Virus record (IMG/VR): IMGVR_UViG_3300020477_000077
Coordinates: 1-34,562 of that record
Direction: 5' to 3' (one strand)
DNA: 34,562 nt
Source of the DNA: a virus
Of the stretch, positions 4,859-11,192 are shown in pieces (the stretch's first letter is position 1; each line of letters starts with the position of its first letter). The position numbers were made by a program, and so were the translations under genes. The notes beneath the pieces were generated by a model. It had not been told where the DNA came from. It was given only the letters and a program-made list of their open reading frames with translations, and did not search any database.

Positions 4859-5335
4859 ATGAAAATAACTTTTGATGAGATAATAGAGGTAGTTCTACAT
4901 CACGAGGGTGGTTATGTAAATGACCCTAAAGATCCCGGTGGTGAGACTAATTTTGGTATTTCTAAACGAGCGTACCCAGATGTTGATATGAAAACTCTCA
5001 CTAAAGAGGGCGCAAAAGATATTTATAAAAGAGATTATTGGGATAAATACAAATGCGAAGATCTCCCAAAAGATCTACGTCACATTTATTTTGATATGTG
5101 TGTAAATATGGGTGCTGGACGTGCTACAAAAATTATGCAACAGACAGCAAACGCTAAAGGAGCGAATCTAAAAGTCGATGGTTACATCGGACCCAAAACA
5201 ATCTCGGCACTAAGCGGTGTAGAACTTGAAAGAGTTCGAGCATATAGAGTAAAGTATTATGTAAATTTGGTTGAACGTAAACCAAGCTTAGAAAAATTTT
5301 ACTTTGGATGGTTTAGAAGAAGCTTAGAAGTCTAA
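4859..5335 (+). CDS. GH108-type lysozyme (N-acetylmuramidase endolysin)
   Basis: This 158-residue protein would cut the glycan backbone of peptidoglycan at lysis. The N-terminus has the glycosyl hydrolase 108 signature HHEGGYVNDPKDPGGETNFG, with E16 of EGGY as the expected catalytic acid. The C-terminal part (from about residue 103: VDGYIGPKTISAL) matches the peptidoglycan-binding-3 half normally paired with GH108. Length is typical of the family. No signal peptide or membrane segment is seen, so export would need a holin, which I did not find here. The start is well supported by AAGGAG at 4846-4851. It follows the fibre gene by 21 nt. T4's own lysozyme (gene e, GH24) is a different family. 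Confidence 0.92.
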   Translation: MKITFDEIIEVVLHHEGGYVNDPKDPGGETNFGISKRAYPDVDMKTLTKEGAKDIYKRDYWDKYKCEDLPKDLRHIYFDMCVNMGAGRATKIMQQTANAKGANLKVDGYIGPKTISALSGVELERVRAYRVKYYVNLVERKPSLEKFYFGWFRRSLEV

Positions 5336-5405: not shown

Positions 5406-8400
5406 ATGAAGAGACTGTATAAAAATATTGCATATGAAGCCATGTATGGTGAAGGTTGTATTGTGCTAGATAATGAACTAGTCAAACAGTATATTGACGA
5501 GTCTGAGAGAATTAGCGAAGGCAGTCAAGTACAGGGTGTATATTCAGATGAAGGATTGTATGATTTTTTCGCTAGCTTTCGTGACTATAGAAGAGTTACA
5601 AAATTAAAAGCTACACAAGTTATAGGATGGCCAGTTGTAGAATACTTACTGGACAAAAAGGCTTCTGATCCGTTCTATGAACTAGGTATGATGGAAGATG
5701 ATGGCTCTGGAATGAAAGGACGTGCAGATTCTGTCTCCTATGGGGGCGCTGTTATTATGGGTGATGAAAATCCATTAGCGTCAGATAGAAAATATATGAA
5801 AGAGATGGAAAATATCATATCAGAGTTAGGCTGGGAAATTATAAAATGGATGGGTGTTGGCCCAAATAGAAAAAGTCAAGTTATTGTTATACCTTCATAC
5901 AAGCTAGGTGAAGAACCTGGAAAATTAAATGAAGATGTAGTAATATTAGTCGAGTTTAAAGAAGAGTTTGGAGCACCTGCAGGATTATTACCGTCACCAA
6001 GCAGAAAAGAAATTGAAAAAGCTAAGAAGAGAAAAGATAAGTCAATATACGCAGAAAAAGAAAATAAGATTGATAAATTAATTGCAATATACCCAGGAAG
6101 ATTCCAACCCTTTGGCCCACATCACAAAGAACAATATAAGTTTTTAAAGAAAAGATTTGATACAGTTTACGTAGTGACAAGTAATAAATCAGGTGGAAGC
6201 AGACATCCAATGAATTTTTCTCAAAAAAAGAGACACATGCAGAAGATGGGAATACCTGGAAGCGCTATTAAAATGGAAAACCAACCGTACATTCCAAAGG
6301 GAATTCTAAATAAAGAGAATGGTGACACAACAGCAGTGATATTTGCAGTTGGTGAAAAAGATGAAGGAAGACTATCAGGCGGAAAATACTTTAAGCAATA
6401 CAGACAAAATTATAATAGGTTAGAGGGATTCGATCACCACGGTTATACACTAAAATTACCGCACACAAGTATCAGGGTTGGAGGTATGGAATTAAGTGGA
6501 ACAACTATGCGTAAGTTACTTGGCTCTGATAAATTTGATATTAAATCAAAACAAAAATTTTTCAAAAGCATGTTTGGATATTTTGATCAAAAAACATTTA
6601 ATAATTTTGTAAAATCTTTTAAAGAAGAAATTAAATTAGATGTAGAAATTGGTGATACAATATTAGTAGGAAGATTTAAAAATAAAAGAATGGTTGTAAA
6701 AGATATTGGTGTTGATAAACACGGTATGCCAACTATTAACGGAAGAAAAGTTACAACATTTAGATATACAAAAGATCCTAATGCATTTAATGAATCATTC
6801 ACTGCAGTCAATAATGATACAGGAAATACTTCTATATTCGATACAGAAGATGCAAGAGACGCTGCAATAAAAAAAGGAACCCATTCTAAAGTGAAGGCTA
6901 AAAAGCCAAAAATTAAAATGCCAAAATTTACAATGCCTAAGATGCCTTCTATAGCAGATAAAATGAAAAAAGACGCAGAAAGAAAAAGGAAGTATGGTGG
7001 AAAGAAAAGAGAACAAAATATAGTTGATGGTGTTGACACAATCAGAGATGAAGATGATTTAGATCATTTTAAACATCAGTTTCTGAAAGAAGGCGATACA
7101 GTAGCGGACATGGATGAGTATGAAAAGCGTGTAGCTGAACAGTATAGAAAACAAAAAGAAAGTATGCCCGAAGAGGAACGTAGACAATTAGAAGATGATG
7201 CTAAGAGTTGGAAACAGCATGGAGGTTATGAAGCTATACAAATTGCAATAAGAGATGGTGATATTACTGAGCAAGATATACTTGACAGAAATGAAAGAAT
7301 GAGTGAAACTGCACATGAAAGCGTAGTGACTGTTGAACAACCTATAGAGCGTGGAATATCAATCCCAGCAGAAGATGCAGATGCATTTTTAGAACGATTT
7401 GTAGAAGGTGAAATTGTTGAAATACCAGATGAAAAAGGGCATGGTTCTAGTGGATTTAGTTTGAGTTCAGATACTGCTAGATTTTTTAGCAGGGCAGAAA
7501 AAGATAATGAAACAGACGACGTTTCTATTCTTATACGTATACAACCAAATGAAAAGGGTGAAATGAGAGGTTTGTATATAGACGGAGAAGACGCAGAGTT
7601 TAGTAGTGAAATGGAAATAATACGTAGCTCTAAATCTAAAGCAAAGGTAATATCAGTAGAGCGAGTAAAATATCCAAACGGTAAAATGGTAATTATAATA
7701 ACGCTACAAGAACCAGATAATTTAACAGAGTCTGATTCTTTTATCGGAAAGATGCTAGCACAGCAAGAAGATGATACACTCTCTAAAAAATATTTAGAAG
7801 GACCATTAAATCCAAGACCAAAAAATTTAACAAAAGAAAATAAAAAGGAGTTATTGCTTATGGGAGGAGCCTACGGACACATGGCACACCCGTTTGATGA
7901 TTACGCATTGACCTTCGGAGAACTGAAGGAAATAATAGACTTAGGGTTACAGGGTAAATTAGACAAAGAAGAATCTGTCACAGAAAAATTAGATGGACAA
8001 AATATAATGATTTCGTGTATAGATGGTATTGCAAAAGCAGCTAGAAATAAAGGTGATTTAAAATCTGGTGGTATGAATTTAAAAGGAGTTAAAGCTAAAT
8101 TCGCAAATCATTTACCAAGTGTTCGAGATGCATTTGTATTCTCTATGAAGGATATTGCTTCTTCTGTTGAGAGAATGTCTAAAAAAGATCAAGAAGCTCT
8201 ATTTGCAAATGGAAAAAATTGGGCAAATATAGAGATAATTTATCCAGGAAATAAGAATGTAATAGACTATGATGGGCCTGCAACAATAGTTTTTCACGGA
8301 ATACTAAAATATAATCAGGCTTGGGTACCTTCTGGAATGGTAAAATCTGGTGGCGCAAAATTATCTGCAATTATTAATGCTGTTAATAAAGGCATTAAGA

Positions 8401-9092
8401 CAAAATTCGCTTTTAAAGGTCCAAATGTGCTAAAATTGCATAAAGTAAAAGACTACACTGCTACCAAGTCAAAATATATTAGCTCTTTGAATAAGTTGCA
8501 GAATATATATAGATTAAAGGATAGCGATGAGCTATCGTTATGGCATCAACACTTTTGGTTAGAATACATATTAGCTGGAGCAAACTCAACGGATTACAGA
8601 AGTATTCCGGACAATGTTTTATACCCACTCATGAAAAGATGGGCATTCTCAGATAAGTCATATAAGATGACAGAAATTAACAAATTAAAGACTGATCATC
8701 CCAATTTCGTTGACTGGGTAAGAACAACAGAAAAATTAGATCATGCTGGTATGTTAAAAGCTAATATGGCACCATTTGAAGAAATATTTTTTGGTGTAGG
8801 AGCTGAGATATTAGCAAACGCAAGCAATTATCTATCAGTAAACCCATCACACACATCACAAAAATTAAGAAATGATTTAGAGGCAGCAGCAAAAGCATTA
8901 AGATCAAAGAAAGATTTTTCCAACATAGGCAAATTAAAAGCGCAACTTAGAAAGTTAAAAGCAATGCCAAGTATTAGTAAGGCTGCACCAACTGAAGGAT
9001 TAGTTTTCAAATACAAAGGAAAAGTATTTAAATTTACAGGTTTCTTTGCACCAATTAATCAAATTTTAGGTTTACAAAAATTTAGTAGGTAA
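5406..9092 (+). CDS. Multidomain NMNAT-like / ADP-ribosyltransferase-like / ligase-like protein
   Basis: This is a 1228-residue protein. Residues 1-220 are unrecognised. Residues ~224-400 form a HIGH-superfamily nucleotidyltransferase (NMNAT/cytidylyltransferase-like), with GRFQPFGPHH at 231-240 and SGTTMRK at 364-370, equivalent to the ISSTxxR motif. Residues ~495-540 are Lys-rich (PKIKMPKFTMPKMPS). Residues ~640-770 fit the R-S-E pattern of ADP-ribosyltransferases: R649 in IERGISIP, GFSLSSD at 683-689, and E735-M-E737. Residues ~790-1228 carry covalent nucleotidyltransferase (DNA/RNA ligase) motifs: K861-L-D-G864 (motif I), R880, E943 in a motif-III-like strand, EGLVFK at 1197-1202 (motif IV) and KVFKF at 1206-1210 (motif V). 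The individual domains are recognised from motifs; substrates are unknown. NAD+ synthesis, protein or RNA modification, or nucleic-acid repair are all possible. The start has a poor ribosome binding site. Confidence 0.75.
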   Translation: MKRLYKNIAYEAMYGEGCIVLDNELVKQYIDESERISEGSQVQGVYSDEGLYDFFASFRDYRRVTKLKATQVIGWPVVEYLLDKKASDPFYELGMMEDDGSGMKGRADSVSYGGAVIMGDENPLASDRKYMKEMENIISELGWEIIKWMGVGPNRKSQVIVIPSYKLGEEPGKLNEDVVILVEFKEEFGAPAGLLPSPSRKEIEKAKKRKDKSIYAEKENKIDKLIAIYPGRFQPFGPHHKEQYKFLKKRFDTVYVVTSNKSGGSRHPMNFSQKKRHMQKMGIPGSAIKMENQPYIPKGILNKENGDTTAVIFAVGEKDEGRLSGGKYFKQYRQNYNRLEGFDHHGYTLKLPHTSIRVGGMELSGTTMRKLLGSDKFDIKSKQKFFKSMFGYFDQKTFNNFVKSFKEEIKLDVEIGDTILVGRFKNKRMVVKDIGVDKHGMPTINGRKVTTFRYTKDPNAFNESFTAVNNDTGNTSIFDTEDARDAAIKKGTHSKVKAKKPKIKMPKFTMPKMPSIADKMKKDAERKRKYGGKKREQNIVDGVDTIRDEDDLDHFKHQFLKEGDTVADMDEYEKRVAEQYRKQKESMPEEERRQLEDDAKSWKQHGGYEAIQIAIRDGDITEQDILDRNERMSETAHESVVTVEQPIERGISIPAEDADAFLERFVEGEIVEIPDEKGHGSSGFSLSSDTARFFSRAEKDNETDDVSILIRIQPNEKGEMRGLYIDGEDAEFSSEMEIIRSSKSKAKVISVERVKYPNGKMVIIITLQEPDNLTESDSFIGKMLAQQEDDTLSKKYLEGPLNPRPKNLTKENKKELLLMGGAYGHMAHPFDDYALTFGELKEIIDLGLQGKLDKEESVTEKLDGQNIMISCIDGIAKAARNKGDLKSGGMNLKGVKAKFANHLPSVRDAFVFSMKDIASSVERMSKKDQEALFANGKNWANIEIIYPGNKNVIDYDGPATIVFHGILKYNQAWVPSGMVKSGGAKLSAIINAVNKGIKTKFAFKGPNVLKLHKVKDYTATKSKYISSLNKLQNIYRLKDSDELSLWHQHFWLEYILAGANSTDYRSIPDNVLYPLMKRWAFSDKSYKMTEINKLKTDHPNFVDWVRTTEKLDHAGMLKANMAPFEEIFFGVGAEILANASNYLSVNPSHTSQKLRNDLEAAAKALRSKKDFSNIGKLKAQLRKLKAMPSISKAAPTEGLVFKYKGKVFKFTGFFAPINQILGLQKFSR

Positions 9093-9094
9093 TT

Positions 9095-9628
9095 ATGAAT
9101 AGTGAAGATAAATATTTAGCCAGTATAATGGCAGGAACGCCACTTGAAAAGAAAGTCATGGTTGGCTATGAAGGTAAAAAAGAAAAGTCTGGCGATAAGA
9201 AAAGCCACCTAACAGATATAATGGCTGAAGTGAGAATGCCGTGGTTTTGCCCAAAATGTGACAAAGTAATGAAACACAAGAACGATAATAAAATGTGGAC
9301 ATTGTTTGGTCATTGTTTTGATTGCCAAATAGAATTTGAGCATGAATTACGTGTAACAGGAAAATATGAAGCGTGGGAAGAAGAAAGAATTTTAAGAAAT
9401 AAGATAGCAATGATTAAGGGTGATATTGAAGAATTGACTGAGTGGAAAAATAATAAAAATTATCAAACAATAGAGCCTGTGAATGTCGATACAGGTTATG
9501 TACACGTTGACAACTTCGAACTCACAGATAAAATGGTTAAAGAGGCCGAAGATGCAATTAATATGCTAGAAGAAAAATTAGAAGGTTTCACTAATAGGCT
9601 AAAAGAGATACAAGATGGCGACGAATAA
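9095..9628 (+). CDS. Zinc-ribbon protein in the small-terminase position
   Basis: This 177-residue protein has a four-cysteine zinc-ribbon: C52-P-K-C55 and C74-F-D-C77. An acidic, helical, coiled-coil-like half follows from about residue 90 to the end. It begins 2 nt after the preceding stop and overlaps the start of the terminase large subunit by 14 nt. In T4 that slot holds gene 16, the small terminase (164 residues), but I see no clear sequence match to gp16, and gp16 is not known for a zinc ribbon. A DNA-recognition or packaging-accessory role is inferred from position and the metal-binding site only. It could equally be an unrelated late regulator. Confidence 0.8.
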   Translation: MNSEDKYLASIMAGTPLEKKVMVGYEGKKEKSGDKKSHLTDIMAEVRMPWFCPKCDKVMKHKNDNKMWTLFGHCFDCQIEFEHELRVTGKYEAWEEERILRNKIAMIKGDIEELTEWKNNKNYQTIEPVNVDTGYVHVDNFELTDKMVKEAEDAINMLEEKLEGFTNRLKEIQDGDE

Positions 9629-11192
9629 GCAGATAAAAGATAAGCTTAGGGAGGAATATGTAAAGTGTGCAACTGATCCGACATATTTTATGAGAGAATA
9701 TTGTTATATTCAACATCCTGTAAAAGGCAAAATGAAATTTGATTTATATGCATTTCAGGAACGTACACTTAAAGATTTTAAAGACAAAGATTATAATATT
9801 ATTCTGAAGGCACGCCAACTTGGAATATCAACACTAACAGCAGGGTATTCATTATGGTTAATGAATTTTCATAATGATAAGAACATTCTTGTAATTGCTA
9901 CAAAACAAGAGGTAGCAAAAAATCTTGTTACAAAAGTTCGTGTAATGCACAAAATGATGCCAGAATGGCTGAAACAAGGATGTGTTGAGGATAACAAGTT
10001 ATCATTAAGATACAAAAATGGTTCACAAATAAAAGCTATATCATCAACCAGTGAAGCAGGTCGTTCTGAAGCGTTATCACTTTTAGTTATGGATGAGGCT
10101 GCATTTATTAAGAATATTGATGAAATATGGGCAGCATCTCAACAGACACTAGCTACTGGAGGTAAATGTATTGCGCTGTCAACACCTAATGGTATGGGAA
10201 ATTGGTTTCATAAAACATGGACAGAGGCAGAAGAAGGAACAAATAGTTTTAATTTTATAAGATTACACTGGACAGTTCATCCTGAAAGAGGTGATGAATG
10301 GCGTAATGAACAAAATAAATTATTAGGGCCTGATATGGCAGCACAAGAATGTGATTGTGATTTCATAAGTTCAGGACAATCAGTAATACCAGCAGCAATT
10401 ATTAAAGAATATCAAGATAATTCTATATGTGAACCAATTGAAAAGAGGTATCATGATGACATGTGGGTATGGAAAAATCCAAGTCAGCAATCAAAATACA
10501 TAATATCTGCTGACGTTGCTAGAGGTGATGGAAGCGACTATTCAGCTTTTCATGTGTTAGATGTAGAAACATTAGAGCAGGTAGCAGAATTTAAATCAAA
10601 AGTTGACACCACAAGATATGCAAATATTCTAATGTCAGTAGGTACAGAGTATAATGACGCTATTCTAGTTGTTGAGAATAATAATGTTGGCTGGGCAGTG
10701 CTGCAAGTTTTACTAGATAGGGAATATAGAAATTTATTCTGGATGAAGAGAGATGTTAAATACATAGATTCAAAGACACAGTATACAAATAAATACAGAA
10801 GTGAAGAAAAGAATATGATTCCAGGGTTCACAACTAGTATGAAAAGTCGACCACTAATTATAGAAAAACTTTCAAAATTTGTTAGAGAAAAACAAGTAAA
10901 AATAAATTCAATCAGATTGATTGATGAATTATATGTTTTTATATTTAATAATGGGAGAGCGGAAGCTTTCAAAGGCTATAATGACGATTTAGTCATGAGT
11001 ATGGCAATAGGACTCTGGATAAGAGAAACTAGTTTACGTCTTCATGAAGAGAATATGAGGATAACAAAAGAGACAATGAGTAAAATGGGAGGAAATTCTG
11101 GCGTTTACATAGTTGAAGAAGAAGATGATTATGGTTGGTCACACCAAGTAGGCGACAAAAAAGAATCACTCACATGGTTAATTAATAATTAA
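9615..11192 (+). CDS. gp17: Terminase large subunit (gp17-like packaging ATPase/nuclease)
   Basis: This motor protein pumps DNA into the prohead and cuts concatemers. The N-terminal ATPase has a Walker-A-like loop KARQLGIST at 65-73, Walker B LLVMDE at 156-161 (D160, E161) and coupling motif LSTPNG at 189-194. The C-terminal RNase-H-fold nuclease has D300 in SADVARGDGSDYS, E354 in LVVENNNVGW and D457/D458 in GYNDDLVMS. These match the spacing logic of the T4 triad D401/E458/D542. At 525 residues it is somewhat shorter than T4 gp17 (610). It overlaps the zinc-ribbon gene and is followed 11 nt later by the portal gene; T4 has sheath and tube genes in between. Confidence 0.97.
   Translation: MATNKQIKDKLREEYVKCATDPTYFMREYCYIQHPVKGKMKFDLYAFQERTLKDFKDKDYNIILKARQLGISTLTAGYSLWLMNFHNDKNILVIATKQEVAKNLVTKVRVMHKMMPEWLKQGCVEDNKLSLRYKNGSQIKAISSTSEAGRSEALSLLVMDEAAFIKNIDEIWAASQQTLATGGKCIALSTPNGMGNWFHKTWTEAEEGTNSFNFIRLHWTVHPERGDEWRNEQNKLLGPDMAAQECDCDFISSGQSVIPAAIIKEYQDNSICEPIEKRYHDDMWVWKNPSQQSKYIISADVARGDGSDYSAFHVLDVETLEQVAEFKSKVDTTRYANILMSVGTEYNDAILVVENNNVGWAVLQVLLDREYRNLFWMKRDVKYIDSKTQYTNKYRSEEKNMIPGFTTSMKSRPLIIEKLSKFVREKQVKINSIRLIDELYVFIFNNGRAEAFKGYNDDLVMSMAIGLWIRETSLRLHEENMRITKETMSKMGGNSGVYIVEEEDDYGWSHQVGDKKESLTWLINN

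What the first reader, a model, noticed from the sequence alone, without database searches (positions are those of the whole stretch)
5406..9092. One late-region phage protein appears to combine NMNAT-like, ADP-ribosyltransferase-like and ligase-like domains
Seen: HIGH-superfamily motifs (231-240, 364-370), an R-S-E set (R649, GFSLSSD 683-689, E735/E737) and ligase motifs I, IV and V (K861LDG, EGLVFK 1197, KVFKF 1206) in one uninterrupted frame. Known: NMNAT makes NAD+ from NMN and ATP, ARTs spend NAD+, and KxDG ligases form enzyme-AMP. Inference: a self-contained NAD/adenylate-handling effector. It could resupply NAD+ against NAD-depleting defences, modify host proteins or RNA, or repair cut nucleic acids. 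I know no characterised protein with this combination.
Basis: partly seen in the sequence, partly recalled or inferred. Interest (0 to 1): 0.88.

Follow-up and report, generated by a model that had tools for sequence, protein, structure and literature searches.

The report
Modular phage nucleotidyltransferase–ART–RNA-ligase protein
A marine virus of bacteria carries one large protein that joins a nucleotidyltransferase, an ADP-ribosyltransferase and an RNA-ligase-like enzyme; it belongs to a widespread, unstudied family of mix-and-match phage proteins whose constant core is the nucleotidyltransferase and the ligase, probably used to repair RNA during infection.

Summary
Window 5406-9092 is one clean 1228-aa frame with a NadM-like HIGH nucleotidyltransferase (NTase), an R-S-E ADP-ribosyltransferase (ART) module and a C-terminal RNA-ligase-like domain. 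Profiles support the NTase, a good fold model the ligase; the ART rests on conserved residues plus a low-confidence model. Four other contigs share the architecture, so it is not an assembly join.

The reading as one closed NAD/adenylate circuit is weakened. Among 90 distinct complete family members the ligase is always last, the NTase is in 83 and the ART in only 5; others carry kinase, CCA-adding, Pol-beta-type or Nudix modules. The terminase gene follows in 55 of 56 testable contigs. The NTase signature HxGH is swapped to GxHH in 93 of 106 members, including this one, and no NadV was found in 12 related records.

Best explanation: a late-region, polyvalent-type modular protein whose conserved job is end repair and sealing of nucleic acid, most likely RNA, with the ART as an exchangeable accessory. 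Activities, virion packaging and the NTase substrate are untested.

The parts
5406..9092 (+). Whole ORF, 1228 aa: ModA - NadM-like NTase - Kow - ART cassette - RNA-ligase-like domain
5466..5915 (+). ModA, residues 21-170: recurrent module without recognised fold or obvious catalytic residues; its position is shuffled between relatives
   Evidence: no Pfam match
6057..6626 (+). NadM-like HIGH-superfamily nucleotidyltransferase, residues 218-407
   Evidence: profile A3 vs PDB: 1f9a E=1.7e-5, 2qjt 8.5e-4; NCBIfam NMN adenylyltransferase models matched by 20 of 20 members, below cut-off
6096..6125 (+). GRFQPFGPHH, swapped GxHH form of the HxGH signature, residues 231-240
   Evidence: GxHH in 93 of 106 distinct relatives, HxGH in 13
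6492..6512 (+). LSGTTMR, the SGTxxR signature, residues 363-369
   Evidence: S364, G365, T366 and R369 invariant
6627..6788 (+). Kow, small (KOW/SH3-like by appearance) recurrent module, residues 408-461
   Evidence: in 51 of 90 complete members, position shuffled
6789..7814 (+). ART cassette, residues 462-803: tag, basic linker, ART core and YLEGPLNP joint; absent from close relatives, where Kow runs straight into the ligase domain
   Evidence: same cassette at the N-terminus of a different protein, L092
7323..7730 (+). R-S-E ADP-ribosyltransferase core, residues 640-775, with R649, S685/S687 and ExE 735-737
7815..9089 (+). RNA-ligase-like adenylation domain, residues 804-1228: K861, N866, R880, E943, E1197, K1209, with a long helical insertion before motif IV
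9095..9628 (+). Small gene with a zinc-ribbon-like CxxC...CxxC pattern, directly downstream in 138 of 156 testable relatives
9615..11192 (+). Terminase large subunit
   Evidence: phrog_2 4.5e-49; downstream of the ligase ORF in 55 of 56 testable relatives
4859..5335 (+). Endolysin (Glyco_hydro_108), upstream neighbour

Best explanation
The protein is a late-region, modular multi-enzyme protein of a T4-like marine phage, of the polyvalent-protein type. Its conserved core is a NadM-like nucleotidyltransferase plus a C-terminal Rnl2-like ligase. Proposed mechanism: the ligase takes AMP from ATP onto K861, moves it to a 5'-phosphate end and seals it to a 3'-OH, repairing nucleic acid cut during infection, most likely tRNA or other RNA cut by host defence nucleases. 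In related proteins the fused kinase, CCA-adding enzyme and Pol-beta-type NTase would prepare the ends. The ART in this version is an exchangeable accessory that would use NAD+ to ADP-ribosylate a host target, probably a protein arginine given the ExE motif. The NTase would adenylylate a small nucleotide such as NMN, possibly to support NAD+ supply. Shown here: domain relationships, motif conservation, modular architecture, conserved position by the terminase. Inferred: the activities, the RNA substrate, the timing and possible packaging in the virion.
For: Ligase motifs I, Ia, IV and V together in 157 of 163 distinct relatives; the spacing from K861 to R880 (+19) resembles K35 to R55 of T4 Rnl2, whose roles are given in PMC3149579. 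The fold model (pLDDT 82) has RNA ligases or putative ligases as its first nine Foldseek hits, with weak E-values, and Naegleria RNA ligase at Z 8.0; BFVD relatives are phage 'cytidyltransferase-like' proteins and then annotated RNA ligases. Exchange modules fit end repair: P-loop kinase in 21 of 90, CCA/poly(A) polymerase (PF01743, 1.5e-29) in 3, Pol-beta type in 3, Nudix in 3; standalone kinase and CCA genes also lie nearby. Terminase-linked position in 55 of 56. ART is patchy and moves between proteins.
Against: No biochemistry. Foldseek E-values for the ligase are weak (best 0.07) and Pfam RNA_ligase stays below its cut-off, so DNA or another substrate is possible. The role of the almost constant NTase in RNA repair is not explained. 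The P-loop module matches zeta toxin/AAA_33 better than a proven polynucleotide kinase. No tRNA gene lies in the window. Virion packaging is untested.
Confidence: 0.5

Rival explanations
1. NAD+ upkeep effector: the NTase makes NAD+ from NMN to offset NAD-depleting defences and to feed the ART; the P-loop kinase of relatives would be a nicotinamide riboside kinase as in NadR and the Nudix module as in bifunctional NadM.
For: Closest solved matches of the NTase profile are NadM NMN adenylyltransferases and NadM-Nudix enzymes; all 20 members match NMN adenylyltransferase models; Nudix or a P-loop kinase is fused in some relatives; phage NadM-Nudix and NadR-kinase fusions are known (PMC9503650).
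Against: Scores lie far below the NadM equivalog cut-off, 13.1 vs 181.2 bits. HxGH is swapped to GxHH. No NAPRTase/NadV in 12 related records including the complete phage Mel-JY01, whereas PMC9503650 reports that every NadM phage also has NadV. It does not explain the constant ligase.
Confidence: 0.22
2. Late DNA processing: the ligase seals nicks or ends in phage DNA before or during packaging, working with the terminase encoded next door.
For: Strict synteny with the terminase and a zinc-ribbon-like gene; some DNA ligases appear among the fold matches.
Against: RNA ligases rank mostly above DNA ligases; the exchange modules (CCA-adding, Pol-beta type, kinase) point to RNA ends. Synteny can simply reflect late expression.
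Confidence: 0.15
3. Injected host-takeover effector in which the ART is the main activity, as in T4 Alt, and the rest serves delivery.
For: ART residues are conserved; polyvalent proteins and head-packaged ARTs are known (PMC5512222, PMC9503650).
Against: ART is in only 5 of 90 complete members and is patchy on the ligase tree, whereas the ligase keeps its catalytic set in nearly all.
Confidence: 0.08

Closest known systems
Polyvalent proteins of phages and conjugative elements (Iyer et al. 2017, PMC5512222)
   Same: Several unrelated enzyme domains in one late-region polypeptide, shuffled between relatives, with ART and metallopeptidase modules in the same pool
   Different: A constant C-terminal ligase plus HIGH NTase core was not found described there: a text search gave no NMNAT, and RNA ligases only as separate phage enzymes
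T4 RNA ligase 2 and related RNA ligases (Pfam PF09414)
   Same: Motif set KxDGxN, R, E, EGxV, K and nucleotidyltransferase fold; T4 Rnl2 (gp24.1) also lies among head genes (general knowledge)
   Different: Below the Pfam cut-off; long helical insertion before motif IV; N-terminal GGAYGHMAHPFDD signature; nearly always the last part of a larger protein
NadM NMN adenylyltransferase
   Same: GRFQP start and SGTxxR end motifs; best PDB profile match
   Different: HxGH swapped to GxHH in most members; far below equivalog cut-off; no NadV partner found
R-S-E mono-ADP-ribosyltransferases (fold matches: ExoS, Vis, C3larvin, HopU1, SidE mART)
   Same: R, SxS and ExE residues in order with a compatible secondary structure
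   Different: No Pfam ART family matched even at E 10; found in six phage contigs here
Microcystis phage Mel-JY01 'cytidylyltransferase like protein' WWT39297.1
   Same: NTase-ligase core, 639 aa, followed by the zinc-ribbon-like gene homologue and terminase
   Different: Lacks ModA, Kow and ART
IleRS2 with GXHH signature (PMC10485003)
   Same: The same exchange of first and third positions of HxGH in a HUP-fold enzyme, with activity retained
   Different: An aminoacyl-tRNA synthetase, not an NTase of this family

Membership tests
Polyvalent proteins | Two or more domains with disparate activities in one polypeptide | tested here: met
   NTase, ART and ligase in one frame; 27 module orders among 90 complete relatives
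Polyvalent proteins | Encoded near late/virion genes | tested here: met
   Terminase downstream in 55 of 56; portal, protease and capsid genes follow
Polyvalent proteins | Packaged in the virion and injected with DNA | not testable with these tools
   Needs virion proteomics
RNA ligase, Rnl2/PF09414 type | Motifs I, Ia, III, IV, V | tested here: met
   K861, N866, R880, E943, E1197, K1209; 157 of 163 relatives keep I, Ia, IV and V
RNA ligase, Rnl2/PF09414 type | Pfam gathering score | tested here: not met
   Best 18.9 bits vs cut-off 27; 19 of 41 members match weakly
RNA ligase, Rnl2/PF09414 type | Covalent nucleotidyltransferase fold | tested here: met
   Model pLDDT 82; RNA ligases fill the top ranks in Foldseek and VIA-align, Z up to 8.0 at 4.3 A over 186 residues; the score itself is middling
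RNA ligase, Rnl2/PF09414 type | Ligation of RNA | not testable with these tools
   Biochemistry needed
NadM NMN adenylyltransferase | HxGH signature | tested here: not met
   GPHH in this protein; HxGH in only 13 of 106 relatives
NadM NMN adenylyltransferase | SGTxxR signature | tested here: met
   LSGTTMR; invariant positions in 20 relatives
NadM NMN adenylyltransferase | NCBIfam equivalog score | tested here: not met
   TIGR01527 13.1 bits vs 181.2
NadM NMN adenylyltransferase | NadV partner in the phage genome | tested here: inconclusive
   PF04095 absent from 12 related records including complete Mel-JY01, but most records are fragments and the window's own genome is incomplete
R-S-E mono-ADP-ribosyltransferase | R, SxS and ExE catalytic residues | tested here: met
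   R649, S685, S687, E735, E737 invariant in 6 sequences
R-S-E mono-ADP-ribosyltransferase | ART fold | tested here: inconclusive
   Model pLDDT only 48.6, yet the first 17 Foldseek hits are all ARTs, best E 0.021; VIA Z up to 5.7
R-S-E mono-ADP-ribosyltransferase | Match to a Pfam ART family | tested here: not met
   No match up to E 10

The most novel reading that the evidence does not exclude
A large, uncharacterised phage protein family in which a HIGH nucleotidyltransferase with a naturally swapped GxHH active site is almost permanently coupled to an RNA ligase, forming a late, possibly virion-packaged nucleic-acid-repair multitool with plug-in modules (kinase, CCA-adding, Pol-beta type, Nudix, ART).
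Probability: 0.3. Interest if true: 0.8.

Novelty: new variant of a known kind. Interest (0 to 1): 0.62.

Why it matters
Phage RNA repair is known mainly as sets of separate enzymes in T4-like phages. If this family does the same as one modular protein made with the terminase, repair tools could be delivered or stockpiled as a single unit, and a gene found in several hundred marine phage contigs would gain a function. The shuffled modules are a natural record of which activities are useful together. The swapped GxHH signature, known to be compatible with activity in IleRS2 (PMC10485003), would be a second case in the same fold superfamily and is directly testable.

Tried and rejected
Assembly join of separate genes: rejected, four other contigs share the order and close relatives show the ART cassette as a clean insertion. 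KptA/Tpt1-like role for the ART: rejected on motif grounds, as R-S-E with ExE is present (KptA motif from general knowledge). Sequence search of PDB with the ligase profile gave only spurious matches (coiled coil of a fusion glycoprotein), and with the ART profile none of note. Pfam on the whole protein gives only a sub-threshold CTP_transf_like hit. Isolated Flavobacterium phage immuto has a terminase-linked protein with a HIGH NTase, and apparently Pol-beta and metallopeptidase motifs, but no detectable ligase domain. No tRNA or Rfam family in the window. Literature searches for this combination found nothing specific.

Full report
What is there. Window 5406-9092 (+) is a single 1228-codon frame. 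It lies in a T4-like late region: endolysin upstream; a small zinc-ribbon-like gene, large terminase, portal, prohead protease and major head protein downstream. The nearest terminases in isolated phages are those of Microcystis phage Mel-JY01 (54%) and Flavobacterium phage immuto (49%). The window is a 34.6-kb IMG/VR record.

Domain evidence. NTase: an alignment of 20 relatives has as its best PDB match the archaeal NMN adenylyltransferase MJ0541 (1.7e-5), then NadM-Nudix enzymes. All 20 match NMN adenylyltransferase models in NCBIfam, but below the cut-offs. Ligase: an AlphaFold model from 29 relatives has pLDDT 82. Its first nine Foldseek matches in PDB are RNA ligases or putative ligases, though with E of 0.07 or worse. 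VIA-align gives Naegleria RNA ligase at Z 8.0, then Trl1, T4 Rnl2, T4 Rnl1 and RNA editing ligase. In BFVD the top matches include phage 'cytidyltransferase-like' proteins, the same family, followed by RNA ligases. ART: only five sequences were available and the model is poor (pLDDT 48.6), yet the first 17 Foldseek matches are all ADP-ribosyltransferases and the VIA list is almost wholly the ART superfamily. R649, S685, S687, E735 and E737 are invariant in six sequences.

The family. After removing duplicates, 90 complete ORFs gave 27 module orders. The ligase is last in all 90. NTase is in 83, ModA in 82, Kow in 51, a P-loop kinase in 21, a short basic module (D5872 in my labels) in 16, ART in 5, an Ntn-hydrolase-like module in 5, CCA-adding in 3, Nudix in 3, Pol-beta type in 3, metallopeptidase in 1. 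The labels Ntn-hydrolase-like and metallopeptidase rest on motifs that I read in L092, and Pol-beta on motifs plus weak Pfam matches. The CCA-adding module is a strong Pfam match in L094 (1.5e-29) and the Nudix module in L076 (1.1e-14).

The ART is an inserted cassette. In relatives such as L007, L010 and L020 the Kow module runs directly into the ligase; in the window residues 462-803 lie between them. The same cassette is at the N-terminus of a different protein, L092, which has no NTase or ligase. On a ligase tree the ART needs three to four gains or losses; L179 is truncated and its ART state unknown, so this count is approximate.

Gene context. The zinc-ribbon-like gene is directly downstream in 138 of 156 testable loci and the terminase follows in 55 of 56. 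Standalone kinase ORFs lie near many members and a CCA ORF directly follows the ligase ORF in L047. Mel-JY01, a complete genome, also carries a separate RNA ligase gene beside an AAA gene and a tRNA gene.

The NTase active site. HxGH is replaced by GxHH in 93 of 106 distinct members and kept in 13. In IleRS2 the same swap is natural and active, because the third histidine takes over the position of the first (PMC10485003). So the swap does not show a dead enzyme, but it does prevent filing this as a standard NadM.

Mechanism. The best-supported reading is nucleic-acid end repair: a conserved ligase with exchangeable end-processing modules, encoded with the late genes. RNA is favoured over DNA by the ranking of fold matches and by the CCA-adding, Pol-beta-type and kinase modules; this is inference. 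The almost constant NTase is the main unexplained part. NAD+ supply is possible, but no NadV was found in 12 related records, whereas published phage NadM genes always occur with NadV (PMC9503650). The ART may modify a host target, as head-packaged phage ARTs are thought to do (PMC9503650).

Verdict. The functional unit, however, is NTase plus ligase, and the triple combination is one rare variant within a widespread modular family.

Noticed in passing
window 6096-6125 and relatives: NTase signature HxGH swapped to GxHH in 93 of 106 family members; 13 keep HxGH.
   Followed up: partly
L092:5566-9522: 1319-aa protein with the same ART cassette plus Pol-beta-type, Kow, Ntn-hydrolase-like, P-loop kinase and HExxH metallopeptidase modules, without NTase or ligase.
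   Followed up: partly
L094:835-6555: 1907-aa member on a contig binned as Flavobacteriales, with a CCA/poly(A) polymerase module (PF01743 1.5e-29).
   Followed up: no
window 9095-9628: Small zinc-ribbon-like gene strictly linked to the NTase-ligase gene and the terminase; function unknown, might stand in for a small terminase.
   Followed up: partly
window 7863-7901 (residues 820-832): Nearly invariant GGAYGHMAHPFDD signature before ligase motif I, modelled with low confidence; no role known.
   Followed up: no
window residues 796-803; also L042, L092: Recurrent joint sequence YLEGPLNP between modules, which may mark exchange points.
   Followed up: partly
L093: Close relative on a contig placed in a Euryarchaeota MAG; more likely a phage contig binned with it.
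   Followed up: no
L099:112-2835: Flavobacterium phage immuto 'NadR' protein: HIGH NTase with apparent Pol-beta and metallopeptidase motifs near the terminase, no ligase domain detected.
   Followed up: partly
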